DNA of 64,000 bases from Kroppenstedtia eburnea. Lineage in GTDB: Bacteria; Bacillota; Bacilli; Thermoactinomycetales; DSM-45169. The notes beneath the pieces are model-generated. The model saw nothing but the letters and a program-made list of their open reading frames with translations, was not told where the DNA came from and did no database searches. Positions 1-62,987 of the stretch are shown one piece after another; positions within the stretch are counted from its first letter, which is position 1; each line of letters begins with the position of its first letter. Location of the stretch: positions 620,001 through 684,000 of the forward strand of contig NZ_CP048103.1 of assembly GCF_013282215.1 (NCBI RefSeq). Direction: 5' to 3'. The position numbers were made by a program, and so were the translations under genes.

Positions 1-384
1 GTGGTACACCTTGGTATACTTTCCGCTTGTTTCGTAGAGGAACGATATCCAACCTTCCTTATCGTAGTATTTTTCTTTTCGATTCCTGAGAAAGATCTGA
101 TTCTCGATCCCCTTTGGAATGCCAATACCTGTTTTGTCGTACATGTCGTACATTTCCTTGTAGGCTTCGAGAATCTTATCCCTTCTGTTCTCATTGAGAT
201 GGAGAACGGTGCAATACCATGTTCTGAATTGCATCAATACTACAAACTTCGGCGTTTCTCCCTCTTTAAACACAACCACGTACATTTCCCGATCGTCGTG
301 CAACTTTTTGGCTTCTTCTTCAGTTAAGGGATCATCAGGAATTCCTCTACTAAGACTCCAGTGGCCATAGTATTCACATTTCAC
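1..384 (-). CDS. Immunity-like protein paralogue, 3' end cut by window edge
   Basis: This is a partial gene, 128 codons visible from a GTG start. The start is chosen because a GGGAGGGT ribosome binding site precedes it at the same spacing as in the intact paralogue at 544-1047. The two proteins are collinear and close throughout: both have MYVVVFKEG, the FRTWYCTV segment and the MYDMYDKTGIGIP stretch. I recognise no named domain. Because the paralogue is coupled to a polymorphic toxin gene, an immunity role is inferred for this copy too. Its own toxin gene is gone; only a scar remains just upstream (381-446). Orphan or duplicated immunity genes are common at polymorphic toxin loci, where they can protect against toxins of related strains. 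Confidence 0.7.
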   Translation of the reverse strand, partial: MKCEYYGHWSLSRGIPDDPLTEEEAKKLHDDREMYVVVFKEGETPKFVVLMQFRTWYCTVLHLNENRRDKILEAYKEMYDMYDKTGIGIPKGIENQIFLRNRKEKYYDKEGWISFLYETSGKYTKVYH

Positions 385-22559: not shown

Positions 22560-22698
22560 CCTGGAAACATGGTGAAAAAGCCGTTCCCAAGAGGGTTGGG
22601 TTTCACATGGAGTGACTTTGGCAGTTCAGAACAACCGGAAGGTCATGTGAAACCCAATCCCGACCGCCTTCAAAGGCAATAAATCTCAATATTTCTGG
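22560..22698 (+). repeat. Palindromic repeat element, copy A (divergent)
   Basis: The core GGGTTGGGTTTCACATGG ... CATGTGAAACCCAATCCCG hairpin is present, with degenerate outer arms (CTGGAAACATGGTGA ... CTCAATATTTCTGG). It lies in the 620-nt gap between the acyl-CoA synthetase and sigI genes. The rest of that gap holds a TATAATATA at 22383 and a CCCCCGGAA/TTCCGGGGG hairpin at about 22450, with no convincing gene. Confidence 0.75.
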
Positions 22699-31739: not shown

Positions 31740-31882
31740 CTAGAAGTATTGTGAAAAAACCATTCAGGGAGGGTTGGGTTTCAGCATGGAGTGATTTTGG
31801 ATCGTCAGAACAACGAAAACGACATGTGAAACCCAATCCCGACCGGCCCGGCCCCAGATAAAGATTTATCAGACAGGCCCTA
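31740..31882 (+). repeat. Palindromic repeat element, copy B1
   Basis: Left end CTAGAAGTATTGTGA, then the core GGGTTGGGTTTCAGCATGG ... ACATGTGAAACCCAATCCCG, with the alternative right end AGATTTATCAGACAGGCCCTAG. It overlaps copy B2 by the shared CTAG. It fills most of the gap between the E2 gene and 32172. Confidence 0.85.
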
Positions 31883-32017
31883 GAAGCGTTGTGAAAAAGC
31901 CATTCACAGGGAGGGTTGGGTTTCACATGGAATGACTTTGGCTCGGAAGAATAACGGAATGGAATGTGAAACCCAATCCCGACCACCTTCAAACGCAGTA
32001 AATCACAATGCTTCTAG
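31880..32017 (+). repeat. Palindromic repeat element, copy B2
   Basis: Full element. Left end CTAGAAGCGTTGTGA, the core hairpin, and right end TCACAATGCTTCTAG, giving near-perfect outer inverted repeats. Confidence 0.88.
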
Positions 32018-33949: not shown

Positions 33950-34088
33950 CTAGAAGCATTGTGAAAAAGCGATTCATAGGGAGGGTTGGGTTTCACATGG
34001 AGTGATTTTGGATCGTCAGAACAACGAAAACGACATGTGAAACCCAATCCCGACCGCCTTCAAACGCACTAAATCACAATGCTTCTAG
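33950..34088 (+). repeat. Palindromic repeat element, copy C1 (reference form)
   Basis: The best-preserved copy. Outer inverted repeats CTAGAAGCATTGTGA / TCACAATGCTTCTAG are a perfect 15 bp; the inner hairpin is GGTTGGGTTTCACATGG / CGACATGTGAAACCCAATCC. It shares its right CTAG with copy C2. The 33722-34546 gap holds only C1, C2 and promoter elements; no gene is evident. Confidence 0.9.
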
Positions 34089-34378
34089 AAGCATTGTGAA
34101 AAAGCCATTCATACCCATAGGGCACAAGTCTCGTCAGGATGCTTTCGCACCCGATCTCGCTATGCACTCACCAGCACAAGTCTCGCCTAGGTCACTCCGT
34201 TCCCGGTCTCGCTATGCACTCACCAGTACAAGTCTCGCCAGGTCACTCCGTTCCCGGTCTCGCTATGTAGGGAGGGGTGGGTTTCACATGGAGTGATTTT
34301 GGCTCGTAAGAACAACGAAAACGACATGTGAAACCCAATCCCGACCGACCATGAACGCATAAATCACAACACTTCTAG
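34085..34378 (+). repeat. Palindromic repeat element, copy C2, expanded by nested 52-bp units
   Basis: Left end CTAGAAGCATTGTGA and right end TCACAACACTTCTAG. Between the left arm and the core lie three units of a 52-bp tandem repeat. Confidence 0.88.
34123..34267 (+). repeat. 52-bp tandem module, 2.8 units, nested in copy C2
   Basis: Units at 34123-34174, 34175-34226 and 34227-34267. Each begins CACAAGTCTCG (TACAAG in the third) and ends GATCTCGCTATG or GGTCTCGCTATG, the first two adding CACTCACCAG. The centre exists in two forms, GGATGCTTTCGCACCC and GGTCACTCCGTTCCC, both able to fold back. Single units occur in other copies at 47105-47155, 56339-56390 and 62364-62424. Confidence 0.85.
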
Positions 34379-36762: not shown

Positions 36763-36849
36763 TCCGCATAGGTACGTTATAAACGCTCGCATGATTCCGG
36801 AAGATGCTGTAAAATACGCGTTTCAATTCCTCATAGGTACGTTATAAAC
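36763..36849. CRISPR. CRISPR relic: one full repeat, one partial repeat, one spacer
   Basis: A full 30-bp repeat at 36820-36849 begins GTTTCAATTCCTCATAGG and ends TACGTTATAAAC. A partial copy ends at 36784 (TTCCGCATAGG, then TACGTTATAAAC), keeping about 22 nt of the repeat. Between them is a 35-nt spacer-sized segment (36785-36819). The GTTTCAATTCCTCATAGGTA head is a well-known motif of type I-B/III repeats in Firmicutes. No cas gene is in the window and no third repeat follows. Confidence 0.7.
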
Positions 36850-47076: not shown

Positions 47077-47587
47077 TAAAAGCGTTGTGAAAAACCCGTC
47101 ATACCCATAGGGCACAAATCTCGCCTAGGTCACTCCGTTCCCGGTCTCGCTATGCAGGGAGGGTTGGGTTTCACATGGAGTGATTTTGGATCGTCGGAAC
47201 AACGAAAACGACATGTGAAACCTAGGGCTGTTGATTAACCCGAAAATGGGCGGTGGAAGGGAGTCGTGTGCTGCCAAAGCGACCTTTGTACCACAGGCAC
47301 TACAATCCAGATGGGCTGAAGCCCTGGGATGAAGGTTGCCATCCTACCCAGCGGAGAATCTGGAGAGAGGGCGTTTAGGGGCAACATTCTTCCTTGTGTT
47401 GCTTCCGTAAGGCTTTGCCCCTGCCCGAAGGTCAGATTTGGAGCGGCCAGTCATTACTTCCTTGCTGGATGGCAACCGGAGCGTGGTAGAACACGATCTC
47501 CCCACCCAAAATATAGCTAATTAACACGCCTGTGTGAAATCCAATCCCGACCGCCTTCAAACGCAGTAAATCACAATGTGCTTCTAA
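47077..47587 (+). repeat. Palindromic repeat element, copy E, split by an insert
   Basis: The left part (47077-47218), including a 52-bp-type unit at 47105-47155, runs up to ACATGTGA. The right part resumes at 47538 with AATCCAATCCCGACC and ends TCACAATGTGCTTCTA. The 319 nt between are foreign to the repeat. Confidence 0.85.
47219..47537 (+). ncRNA. Structured-RNA-like insert, possible ORF-less HEARO/IscB-type element
   Basis: The insert sits directly after GTGA inside the repeat copy E, and the same GTGA recurs at its right end. It has no reading frame with start and ribosome binding site but is dense in stems: CCAGAT/ATCTGG enclosing GGGCT/AGCCC, AGGGGCAA/TTGCCCCT enclosing CTTCCGTAAGG, and GGCCAG/CTGGATGGC. 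HEARO RNAs, the guide RNAs of IscB elements, are known to occur as repeats without a reading frame, and I recall their insertion after ATGA or GTGA. The resemblance is judged by eye. Another IS remnant or an unknown structured RNA is possible. Confidence 0.4.
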
Positions 47588-51150: not shown

Positions 51151-51189
51151 AGAGGCTCTCCCTCCCTGTCAATATGTTTTTGAAGGCAG

Positions 51190-51294
51190 TCGGGGTTGGG
51201 TTTCACATTCCATTTTCGTTGTTCTGACGATCCAAAATCACTCCATGTGAAACCCAACCCTCCCTTTGAGGGGCTTTTTCACAATGCTTCTAGA
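51190..51294 (-). repeat. Palindromic repeat element, copy G
   Basis: Reverse orientation, short left side. It has the core GGGTTTCACATTCC ... CATGTGAAACCCAACCCTCC and ends TCACAATGCTTCTAGA. It lies between the IIB and IIC genes and includes the stop codon of the IIB gene. Confidence 0.87.
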
Positions 51295-51598
51295 TCCCCA
51301 TGAGCTGTTTGACGGTTTTCAGCAAGATCGGCCCGCCCAGCGGAGTGTAAGCCTGGGGAGGAATGGCGCCACAAGGTACGGAAGCTTGGTCAGCCGCCTT
51401 CTGGATCGATTCCATCCGGTGCCTCACCTGGGGTGCCACCATCACGAGATCCCAGCCCTTGTTCAATTCGGCTTCGATGTCGCTTGTCCCCACCGCCTGC
51501 ACATCCAGCTCCACCCCCTGTTTTTCTCCCTCCTTTTTCAACGCCTGTACTACAATCGCACTGGACATGCCCCCTGAACATACGAACAACACCCTCAT
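51290..51598 (-). CDS. PTS cellobiose-family subunit IIB
   Basis: 102 residues. The phosphorylated Cys is at the N-terminus in VLFVCSGGMSSAIVVQAL; the rest is the small alpha/beta EIIB fold (WDLVMVAPQVRHRMESIQKAA). It passes phosphate to the sugar carried by IIC. ATG 51598 follows GAGGAGGAG. The TAG stop is the terminal CTAG of the repeat copy G, so the insertion sits exactly at the gene end; QLMGI may or may not be the original C-terminus. Confidence 0.87.
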   Translation of the reverse strand: MRVLFVCSGGMSSAIVVQALKKEGEKQGVELDVQAVGTSDIEAELNKGWDLVMVAPQVRHRMESIQKAADQASVPCGAIPPQAYTPLGGPILLKTVKQLMGI

Positions 51599-56126: not shown

Positions 56127-56312
56127 ATGGAAAAGAGGGACCGGGATCGGGGCCGTACCCACCTGGATCCGCTGGAGCAGGCGACGGAAGCGCTTCCGAA
56201 ACTGGATCGACATCCGACGGAAGAAGCAAAAGATGCCGATCTCCTGGACCATGAAGAAGGGATTCGGGATCCGGAACGACTTCCCTACAGTGAACAGCTG
56301 AAACGTCTTTAG
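56127..56312 (+). CDS. Small, highly charged hypothetical protein
   Basis: 61 residues, almost entirely charged and polar (EKRDRDRGRTHLDPLEQATEALPKL ... DLLDHEEGIRDPERLPYSEQLKRL), no hydrophobic core. ATG 56127 has GGAGG 7 nt upstream. The composition recalls small Bacilli proteins of unknown role made in stationary phase. The stop TAG is the end of the repeat copy H, so the original C-terminus may have differed. Confidence 0.5.
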   Translation: MEKRDRDRGRTHLDPLEQATEALPKLDRHPTEEAKDADLLDHEEGIRDPERLPYSEQLKRL

Positions 56313-56473
56313 AGGTGTTGTGAAAAAGCCATTCATACGCATAGGGCACAAGTCTCGCCAGGGTGCTTTCGCACCCGGTCTCGCTATGCAGGGAGGGTTG
56401 GGTTTCACATGGAGTGACTTTGGCTCGTAAGGACTTTGGCACGCAATGTGAAACCCAATCCCGACCGCCTTCC
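56309..56473 (+). repeat. Palindromic repeat element, copy H
   Basis: Left terminus TTTAGAGGTGTTGTGA, one 52-bp-type unit (56339-56390) with centre GGGTGCTTTCGCACCC, then the core hairpin. Truncated on the right after CCGACCGCC. Confidence 0.85.
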
Positions 56474-56576: not shown

Positions 56577-57269
56577 ATGACACATCTGGACAATCTGAAA
56601 GAGGCGGCCCGGCAACAGATCGCCCATCTGTTGCCCAACGGCATTTTCGATGAGTTCGACCAGCTGAACTCGCGGATGCTGATCGCTGTCACCTGCTTGC
56701 AGCGGGGACTGAAGGATCTCGCATATCCGTTGTTTCAATCCATCGCCGAGCATGGCCCCGCTGATAATGAAAATCGTCACTTCGCCTATGTGCGCAGTCT
56801 GGTGGAGATGGCCGAGATGGATGCGGAAAAAGAGGATTTTGCGCAGGCGGAAGAGAAAATGGACACGGCCCTGCGGGAATTCCCCGAGTCGATGGGGTAT
56901 ATGATGAGCCGGGTCCATCTGGAAGTCTACCTCACCTACTACCGATACCGCCTGGGCAAAAAAGAAGCGGCTTATGCCGGATTGGAAGAGATCATCCGGC
57001 GGGAAGAGAAGCGGTTCCGGGAGTTGGGTCCGGAAGACGGCCGCAACCTGGCGGGGCCGGGACTCTCCTATGCCATACACCAATTGGCCCTGTTCCACGG
57101 GGAGGATGGAAATTGGAAACAGGCTGTGGAGGTCTTCCGCCGGTTGCGGGATACCGTTTCCGAGGTGGATGAGGAAAGCTGGGGGCAGGGAGAGAGCCTG
57201 GCTGAACAAGGCCGGTACGCAGAGGCTTATCAGCACATGGAGGAGTCCGTCAGTTATCACGCGGGGTAG
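56577..57269 (+). CDS. TPR-type helical repeat protein of unknown function
   Basis: 230 residues, soluble, helical throughout with TPR-like pairs (LAYPLFQSIAEHGPADNENRHF; FAQAEEKMDTALREFPES; WKQAVEVFRRLRDTVSE; YAEAYQHMEESV). Likely a protein-interaction scaffold; no catalytic motif. ATG 56577 with GAGGGAG upstream and a TTACAAT -10 about 65 nt before it. The TAG stop coincides with the start of the repeat copy I. Confidence 0.7.
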   Translation: MTHLDNLKEAARQQIAHLLPNGIFDEFDQLNSRMLIAVTCLQRGLKDLAYPLFQSIAEHGPADNENRHFAYVRSLVEMAEMDAEKEDFAQAEEKMDTALREFPESMGYMMSRVHLEVYLTYYRYRLGKKEAAYAGLEEIIRREEKRFRELGPEDGRNLAGPGLSYAIHQLALFHGEDGNWKQAVEVFRRLRDTVSEVDEESWGQGESLAEQGRYAEAYQHMEESVSYHAG

Positions 57270-59427: not shown

Positions 59428-59556
59428 ATGTTTTCTTCCCACAATATGAGTTTCCCTGAATATGTCCACAGTCTGGATAAAAAGATGGAAGTGGAAAAAA
59501 GGCGGGAACAGGAATATCGAAAGGCCAAACAATGGTTGATGGAGGCGGGAGTTTAG
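59428..59556 (+). CDS. Possible small charged protein
   Basis: 42 residues beginning MFSSHNMSFPEYVHSLDKK, then a charged helix (VEKRREQEYRKAKQWLMEAG). No ribosome binding site is evident, so expression is uncertain. The frame ends at the TAG that opens the repeat copy J, which suggests a truncated or re-terminated gene. The 59211-59427 stretch before it holds a G/C-rich hairpin and nothing else recognised. Confidence 0.35.
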   Translation: MFSSHNMSFPEYVHSLDKKMEVEKRREQEYRKAKQWLMEAGV

Positions 59557-59725
59557 GACGTGGCAGGTCAATTCAAGTTTACGGAGGAATGTGAGACGCG
59601 TTGTGAGAATAACAGAGGGAGGGTTGGGTTTCACATGGAATGACTTTGGCTCGGAAGAACAACGGAATGGAATGTGAAACCCAATCCCGACCATTCAAGA
59701 AAGCACTAAATCACAATGTTTCTAA
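59554..59725 (+). repeat. Palindromic repeat element, copy J
   Basis: Left terminus TAGGACGTGGCAGGTCAATT (similar to the GGGCGTGTCTGGTAATTCAA form), the core GGGTTGGGTTTCACATGG ... GAATGTGAAACCCAATCCCG, and right end TCACAATGTTTCTA. Confidence 0.86.
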
Positions 59726-62235: not shown

Positions 62236-62496
62236 AAGCCCCTGGCGAGACTTGTGTCCTGTGGGAACGACAGCTTTTTCACAATGCTTCTAGTGCCCCT
62301 TCAGGAAACTTTGATCTTGTTTTTCAGCAAGGCGGAGGCAGGAGGGTGGGGCGGCTCCGATCTCTTGCAAAGAGCGCATAGCGAGACCGGGAACGGAGTG
62401 ACCTTGGCGAGACTTGTGCCCTACAAAGGCGAATCAAATCCCCACCCTCCTTACCTTTCTGTGATTTTCCACACAATGTTCTCTGAGGGGCACTAG
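62236..62496. repeat. Composite of repeat-element fragments
   Basis: It contains part of a 52-bp-type unit (TGGCGAGACTTGTGTCC, 62240), a right arm TTTTTCACAATGCTTCTAG (near 62275-62293), a full reverse 52-bp-type unit (about 62364-62424), and terminal inverted repeats TAGTGCCCCTTCAG / CTGAGGGGCACTA. The core GGGTTTCACAT hairpin is absent. Nothing else is seen in 62173-62492 apart from an imperfect hairpin at about 62190-62218. Confidence 0.7.
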
Positions 62497-62987
62497 AATG
62501 CGTAATCAAAAGCACGTTCCATTTGATCGGCCTCTTTGGAGACTGCGAAAAAAATAAATGGACCCTTTGTCTTTAAAACGTGTTTATCGATCAAAAAAAA
62601 CTCTTCCGGGCGGTAATCCTTGAATTTTACGGTTTGGGCGTCGATTCTGTGCGATATTTTCTCTTTGACACTCTCTATCTGATGGGCATCTTTTACTTTG
62701 ATAATGGCCAATTCATCGGCCTTTACATTGGATGAGGCCGTAAAAAGGATGAAATCTTCAATGCTGTCGGCATCGATTTGATACAATTTTTGCAGCTTGC
62801 TCATGTCCCCTGGTTTCATGTGATCCAGGTTAACTTCCTGTTCAATCCGTTTCCCCACTTCGACAGCAGAAAGTTTTTCGACTGCCTCCTCTTTCTCACC
62901 GGAGCATCCGGACAAGAGACTCATCGCCACGGCCAGTGCGAACATCACGGCCAAAAACGTTCTTATATCCTTCCCATACCGCTTCAT
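62493..62987 (-). CDS. DUF4358-type lipoprotein
   Basis: 164 residues. Lipoprotein signal: basic N-terminus, hydrophobic AVMFALAVAMSLLSG and lipobox LLSGC with Cys near residue 28. The mature part (ELAIIKVKDAHQIESVKEKISHRID and surrounding) fits the DUF4358 family. The ATG overlaps the stop of the DHHW gene by ATGA, with GGAGG inside that gene, so they are translated together. DUF4358 lipoproteins usually accompany DHHW and MBOAT acyltransferase genes for surface-polysaccharide acetylation. The TAG stop is the terminus of the adjacent repeat composite. Confidence 0.8.
   Translation of the reverse strand: MKRYGKDIRTFLAVMFALAVAMSLLSGCSGEKEEAVEKLSAVEVGKRIEQEVNLDHMKPGDMSKLQKLYQIDADSIEDFILFTASSNVKADELAIIKVKDAHQIESVKEKISHRIDAQTVKFKDYRPEEFFLIDKHVLKTKGPFIFFAVSKEADQMERAFDYAF

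What the first reader, a model, noticed from the sequence alone, without database searches (positions are those of the whole stretch)
51287..51294. Repeat termini supply the stop codons of five genes
The TAG stops of the PTS IIB gene (51290), the 61-residue gene (56312), the TPR gene (57269), the 42-residue frame (59556) and the DUF4358 lipoprotein gene (62493) all lie in the terminal CTAG/TTAG of the elements. Five in one window is beyond what I would expect by chance. It suggests insertion at a TA within stop codons or selection for copies whose end terminates the frame, protecting genes from read-through into the palindrome.
Basis: partly seen in the sequence, partly recalled or inferred. 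Interest (0 to 1): 0.62.

Follow-up and report, generated by a model that had tools for sequence, protein, structure and literature searches.

The report
Small transposons landing in stop codons
Hundreds of short non-coding mobile repeats in this bacterium sit at CTAG-like sites, and about one in six of those sampled lies exactly in a gene's stop codon without changing the protein, which looks odd but is mostly an ordinary result of where they land and which landings do no harm.

Summary
Four of the five stops (51290, 56312, 59556, 62493) lie in the terminal CTAG/TTAG of an element; 57269 reads GTAG beside a decayed end. In a sample of 218 elements, 34 distinct ends carry a gene's stop as the last three letters of the flanking tetramer, a one-nucleotide peak. 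In the main family that tetramer is not element sequence but a 4-bp target duplication, consensus CTAG. Comparison with K. guangzhouensis shows no truncation: 25 of 25 such stops fall at the same codon. Conditioned on tetramer, stops are hit about 3 times more than expected (34 against 11.3), but the first 30 nt after stops show a similar excess (37 against 14.7), so stop-specific targeting is not needed. Best reading: MITEs with a CTAG/YTAR target hit existing stops, the duplication regenerates the stop, and insertions at gene 3' ends are tolerated. Unsettled: filled stops are TAG, while 10 of 12 empty orthologues are TAA or TGA (p 0.0003 or 0.015 by two controls). Pneumococcal BOX repeats are a published precedent (PMC3049150).

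The parts
51290..51293 (-). CTAG at the 5' end of a minus-strand a-type element; contains the TAG stop of the PTS IIB gene (51290-51598)
   Evidence: orthologue in G001 without the element ends with TAG at the same codon; PF02302 PTS_IIB
51186..51293 (-). a-type element (core 51238-51260), 3' end decayed; between PTS IIB and IIC genes; absent from G001. Left limit approximate
56309..56312 (+).
57267..57269 (+). TAG stop of the TPR-like gene; reads GTAG, next to a decayed element end without TIR; same TAG in G001 without element
59553..59725 (+). Chimeric element (5' c-type end, 3' a-type end), flanked by TTAG and CTAA; TTAG holds the stop of the 42-residue frame; G001 empty site reads TTAAA with TAA stop at the same codon
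62290..62496 (.). IS630-type MITE with ends CTAG|TGCCCC; CTAG 62493-62496 holds the TAG stop of the DUF4358 gene (62493-62987, minus)
   Evidence: similar ends flank a DDE_3 transposase gene in L260 (PF13358)
31880..32017 (+). Intact a/a element flanked by CTAG on both sides (example away from a stop)
33950..34378 (+). Two a/a elements in tandem sharing one CTAG (34085-34088)
22561..22698 (+). a/a element with 4-bp duplication CTGG/CTGG; empty site CCGG in G001

Best explanation
The repeats are modular MITEs (non-autonomous transposons, mostly about 130-240 bp between ends) of at least three end types. They insert at 4-bp sites of consensus CTAG (YTAR). A stop codon TAG or TAA preceded by C or T is such a site, so a share of insertions falls exactly on it. 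Main family: the 4-bp site is duplicated, so the copy on the gene side keeps the stop. IS630-type and probably c/b family: TA is duplicated and the element begins with G, so TAA or TAG becomes TAG. Either way the protein is unchanged. Insertions at and just after gene ends are over-represented 2.5 to 3 times, most simply because they do least harm. Shown: ends, 4-bp duplication, same-codon stops, the peak, the 3'-end excess. Inferred: transposition as the cause, tolerance as the reason for the excess, the TA mode for c/b and, in this genome, for the IS630-type element.
For: 4-bp duplications: 62 of 105 well-matched a/a pairs identical against 24.3 by shuffling. Empty sites: flanks are 4 nt apart in 15 of 33 candidate insertion differences, the commonest distance, with clean cases CAAG/CAAG/CAAG, CTAT/CTAT/CTAT, CTAA/CTAA/CTAA (left/right/empty). 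Same-codon stops: 25 of 25 against 330 of 385 other orthologue pairs (p 0.035). Exact peak: 34 ends at distance 0, at most 3 at any other position from -8 to +40. Free CTAG sites in 1.5 Mb of G001: 19 of 163 are stop codons. Observed/expected ends: stops 3.0, 3' side 1-30 nt 2.5, 31-100 nt 1.4, 101-200 nt 1.1, further 0.86; 5' side 1.5, 0.79, 1.37, 0.57 for the same bins. IS630-type partner found.
Against: The empty orthologue's stop is TAA (4) or TGA (6) in 10 of 12 clean cases. Against TAG stops without an element this is p 0.0003 if each species' TAG is a case (10 of 42), but 0.015 if each pair counts once (10 of 26), and 0.06 or 0.11 when doubtful cases are dropped or added. TGA is not a preferred target. 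Stops reading TTAG outnumber CTAA 11 to 1 although sites are about equal (26 and 27; p 0.003); in the a family alone it is 6 to 1 (p 0.065). Two CTAG/CTAG insertions in unique flanks have non-CTAG empty sites (1552019: CTCC; 310547: CAT). No transposase with a-type or c-type ends was found. 18 of 33 insertion differences have a flank distance other than 4. The 5' side is uneven (excess at 1-30 and 101-200 nt), so the tolerance gradient is not clean.
Confidence: 0.7

Rival explanations
1. The ends write the stop: insertion hits a stop codon of any type and leaves TAG because the element (or its conversion by other copies) carries CTAG at its tips, so the element literally supplies the terminator.
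For: Filled alleles TAG in 15 of 15 stops with an end in one species only; empty alleles TAG 2, TAA 4, TGA 6 among the 12 clean ones, near to general stop usage in G001 (TGA 836, TAA 419, TAG 151); CTAG/CTAG insertions with non-CTAG empty sites.
Against: Several a/a insertions keep a non-CTAG duplication equal to the empty site. Where the far tetramer can be read at a TGA or TAA case it is YTAA (679557, 881040, 663324, 3339769, 2289129), which points to a TAA target and later drift to TGA in the empty lineage. No excess of complementary over identical ends (4 against 3.0 by shuffling). The stop-type difference weakens with a pair-wise control.
Confidence: 0.17
2. Selection for elements whose end terminates the frame, protecting the gene from read-through into the palindrome.
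For: Threefold excess at stops over tetramer-only expectation.
Against: Nearly the same excess 1-30 nt after stops, where no frame needs ending; no lengthened or truncated C-termini; the original stop is kept anyway.
Confidence: 0.05
3. Gene-calling artefact: the TAG in an element end terminates spurious short frames.
For: Ten of the 34 genes score below 40; the 42-residue frame and the frame ending at 56312 match no Pfam family.
Against: 24 well-scored genes against 7.2 expected; orthologues with the same stop, short ones included.
Confidence: 0.05

Closest known systems
BOX elements of Streptococcus pneumoniae (PMC3049150; passages seen)
   Same: Modular small repeats; in 36 CDSs the repeat encodes the stop codon at the extreme 3' end, and orthologues give no strong evidence of truncation
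   Different: No shared sequence was looked for; exact-register peak, target duplication and empty sites are tested here, and do not appear in the passages seen
IS630 family insertion sequences and their MITEs
   Same: CTAG context; a DDE_3 transposase gene in this genome has ends like those of the 62290-62496 element. TA duplication of the family: passages of PMC2170065; IS630's CTAG preference seen there only as a cited title
   Different: The main a/a family duplicates 4 bp, not TA
IS5 group (4-bp target duplication YTAR; passages of PMC10359306)
   Same: Length and consensus of the duplication
   Different: No transposase with matching ends found; ends AAGCRTTGTGA not compared with ISfinder (not available)

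Membership tests
MITE | Terminal inverted repeats | tested here: met
   AAGCRTTGTGA...TCACAAYGCTT (a), GGGYGTGTCTGRTAAWTC (c/b), TGCCCC (IS630-type):
MITE | Short, no transposase gene | tested here: met
   Distances between ends mostly 128-246 bp, too short for a transposase gene
MITE | Target site duplication | tested here: met
   a/a; c/b: only compatible with TA, 16 pairs
MITE | Autonomous partner with the same ends | tested here: inconclusive
   Found for the IS630-type only. For a and c/b: four Pfam transposase families searched in the own genome, ends looked for at seven of these loci and in 935 kb held; nine of the genes found between a-type ends there are ordinary, none a transposase
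MITE | Mobility | not testable with these tools
   Only inferred from insertion differences between two species
IS630 MITE (62290-62496) | Ends shared with a DDE_3 element | tested here: met
IS630 MITE (62290-62496) | TA duplicated on insertion | tested here: inconclusive
   CTAG on both sides; no empty site, as the orthologue was not found in the G001 DNA held
IS5-group MITE (a/a) | YTAR duplication and IS5-type transposase with same ends | tested here: inconclusive
   Duplication met; the two DDE_Tnp_1 genes show no convincing ends of this kind
BOX element | boxA/B/C sequence | not tested
   Not aligned with BOX; the Rfam scan of the window at gathering thresholds gave only a CRISPR repeat hit

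The most novel reading that the evidence does not exclude
The insertion itself rewrites the stop: the mobile element captures stop codons of any type and replaces them by TAG at the same codon, because its tips carry CTAG through a joining step that is not plain target duplication. That would be an unrecognised way for a transposon to insert into gene ends without cost.
Probability: 0.13. Interest if true: 0.6.

Novelty: new member of a known kind. Interest (0 to 1): 0.33.

Why it matters
It shows how a target preference that resembles a stop codon lets a transposon settle in a compact genome: CTAG is scarce between genes, yet 12% of free CTAG sites are stop codons (19 of 163), and the duplication makes such hits silent. 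It also warns annotators that a stop inside a repeat need not mean a truncated gene. The shift of stop type at filled sites is a clear, cheap question for more genomes of the genus.

Tried and rejected
Orientation bias of elements along genes (92 against 38) was an artefact of which hits the search listed; in two contiguous stretches it is 23 against 17. Palindrome correction of the two flanks (left becoming the complement of the right) was tested and not supported. Searching for autonomous copies between a-type ends gave several genes; I scanned nine of them in Pfam and none is a transposase. PF13546, PF13340, PF01609 and PF13358 were searched in the own genome; only PF13358 led to matching ends. 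The first element count (281) counted mirror images of the core on the opposite strand; the cleaned set is 218, in which at least one element (window 31740-31883) is still picked by its mirror core and given a wrong end (31817). In one search, with a looser end motif, 26 of 28 pairs had the same stop; the two that differed were three-error matches at TGA stops and vanished with the stricter motif. From the 15 stops with an end in one species only I dropped three (2323107, 904388, 3465638) because the other species shows element remnants; keeping them gives 10 of 15 non-TAG (p 0.005 by the tip-wise, 0.11 by the pair-wise control). Two kept ones are doubtful (755772 and 2289129: an element lies nearby in the other species); without them 8 of 10 (p 0.0017 or 0.06). 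Of the 33 insertion differences, at least four have flanks inside the repeat's own module or another element (3001917, 351460, 2878120, 693.9 kb), so their 'empty' partner may be another copy; the flank fit allowed up to 9 of 28 mismatches. Of 36 stop cases, 21 had no orthologue in the G001 DNA then held. One search (Kroppenstedtia, repeat, genome) found 29 papers; among the 10 listed none is about repeats of this genus. Other paper searches. Target rules of IS701 and IS427 came to mind from memory and are not used as evidence.

Full report
What is in the window. The window is bases 620001-684000 of a 3.56 Mb genome; the only named organism found with the exact repeat core is Kroppenstedtia guangzhouensis (the own genome may be left out of that scan). 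The core (TTGGGTTTCACATGGAGTGA, up to 2 mismatches) occurs 318 times in the own genome, 81 times in G001, once each in two genomes of other genera of the family, and in none of the other 27 of 31 genomes searched. Elements are mosaics: 5' ends of type a (AAGCRTTGTGA) or c (GGYGTGKC), 3' ends of type a or b, in all four combinations.

The five stops. Four of five are in a terminal CTAG or TTAG. The TPR gene's stop (57269) is GTAG beside an end without terminal repeat. The DUF4358 gene's stop lies in a different element, 62290-62496, whose ends CTAG|TGCCCC also flank a DDE_3 (IS630-type) transposase gene at about 861.1-862.3 kb.

What the CTAG is. In the main a/a family the four letters outside the two ends are a duplicated target. 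Of 105 well-matched pairs, 62 are identical (24.3 by shuffling) and 23 are identical without being palindromic (2.4 by shuffling, never reached in 2000). Empty sites agree: in 33 candidate insertion differences between the two species, the flanks are 4 nt apart in the empty copy in 15 (next: 3 nt in 6), with clean triplets such as CAAG/CAAG/CAAG, CTAT/CTAT/CTAT and CTAA/CTAA/CTAA. Some of the 33 are nested in other elements, and the fit was loose for several. For c/b elements (16 pairs) left and right are not associated; left reads mostly YTAG (11 of 16) and right mostly CTAR (9 of 16), as expected if TA is duplicated and the element begins with G. The sample is small.

How often a stop is hit. 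Among 379 distinct ends of 218 elements, 34 have a called gene's stop as the last three letters of the tetramer; tetramers CTAG 19, TTAG 11, one each of CTGA, CTAA, TTAA, ATAA. Other positions from -8 to +40 have at most 3. Expected numbers were computed from the tetramers used away from stops and the count of those tetramers at stops and between genes in 1.5 Mb of G001 with elements masked: 11.6 (8.1-16.2), or 7.2 for well-scored genes, where 24 were seen. An earlier background of 360 kb had given 20.4. Free CTAG sites are stop codons in 19 of 163 cases. The excess is not special to the stop: the first 30 nt after stops hold 37 ends against 14.7 expected, 31-100 nt 41 against 29.3, while starts show 22 against 14.7 (1-30 nt), 29 against 36.8 (31-100 nt) and 52 against 37.8 (101-200 nt). 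Scaling by the 1-30 nt excess gives 28.4 expected at stops; 34 is then unremarkable (p 0.17).

Proteins are not shortened. Of 410 orthologue pairs compared, 25 have an element end directly after the stop in one or both species; all 25 stop at the same codon, against 330 of 385 others. For the window: IIB has TAG in G001 without element, the 56312 frame TGA, the 42-residue frame TAA, the TPR gene TAG; the DUF4358 gene has no orthologue in the DNA held.

What remains odd. In the 15 stops where one search found an element end in one species only, the filled allele is TAG in 15. Leaving out three with remnants in the other species, the empty allele is TAG in 2, TAA in 4, TGA in 6. TAG stops without an element have a non-TAG partner in 10 of 42 if each species' TAG is a case (the 16 TAG/TAG pairs counted from both sides), or in 10 of 26 pairs; the difference has p 0.0003 or 0.015, and 0.0017 to 0.11 with other choices of cases. 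Where the far copy of the tetramer can be read it is YTAA, which suggests a TAA target, TAG on the gene side, and later TAA to TGA drift in the empty lineage; TAA against TGA is the commonest change (23 and 18 of 330 same-stop pairs without element), but six TGA of ten remains high. With two genomes the direction cannot be settled.

Known or new. MITEs, CTAG/YTAR targets and silent insertion in stops are known kinds of thing. A study of pneumococcal BOX repeats (PMC3049150, passages seen) reports 36 genes whose stop is encoded by the repeat without strong evidence of truncation. IS5 is described with target motif YTAR (PMC10359306, passages). IS630-family insertion into TA is in PMC2170065 (passages), where the IS630 preference for TA in CTAG appears as a cited title. 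Other papers were seen in search listings only, except PMC3119063, of which passages were seen.

Noticed in passing
window 36820-36849: Single Rfam CRISPR-DR2 direct-repeat match (43.1 bits, gathering 37)
   Followed up: no
window 15-314 and 678-977: 300-nt direct repeat, 83% identical, 663 nt apart
   Followed up: no
window 34122-34269, 47112-47156, 56346-56390, 62240-62430: A module like GGGCACAAGTCTCGCC...CTCGCTATGCA is shared between a-type elements and the IS630-type MITE; at 34122-34269 it stands three times in a row
   Followed up: partly
G000 756.8-788.1 kb: About 31 kb present here and absent at the syntenic place in G001; holds both DDE_Tnp_1 transposase genes and one DDE_3 gene
   Followed up: no
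a/a elements in the sample: Left ends read CTGG (22) and right ends CCAG (23) far more often than the reverse (right CTGG 4, left CCAG 5, mirror cores included); unexplained
   Followed up: partly
G000 3465638 and 904388: In G000 the gene stop is TAG followed by CTGG and an a-type end, in G001 TAG is followed by the (at 904388 poor) end directly: a 4-nt shift at one stop
   Followed up: no
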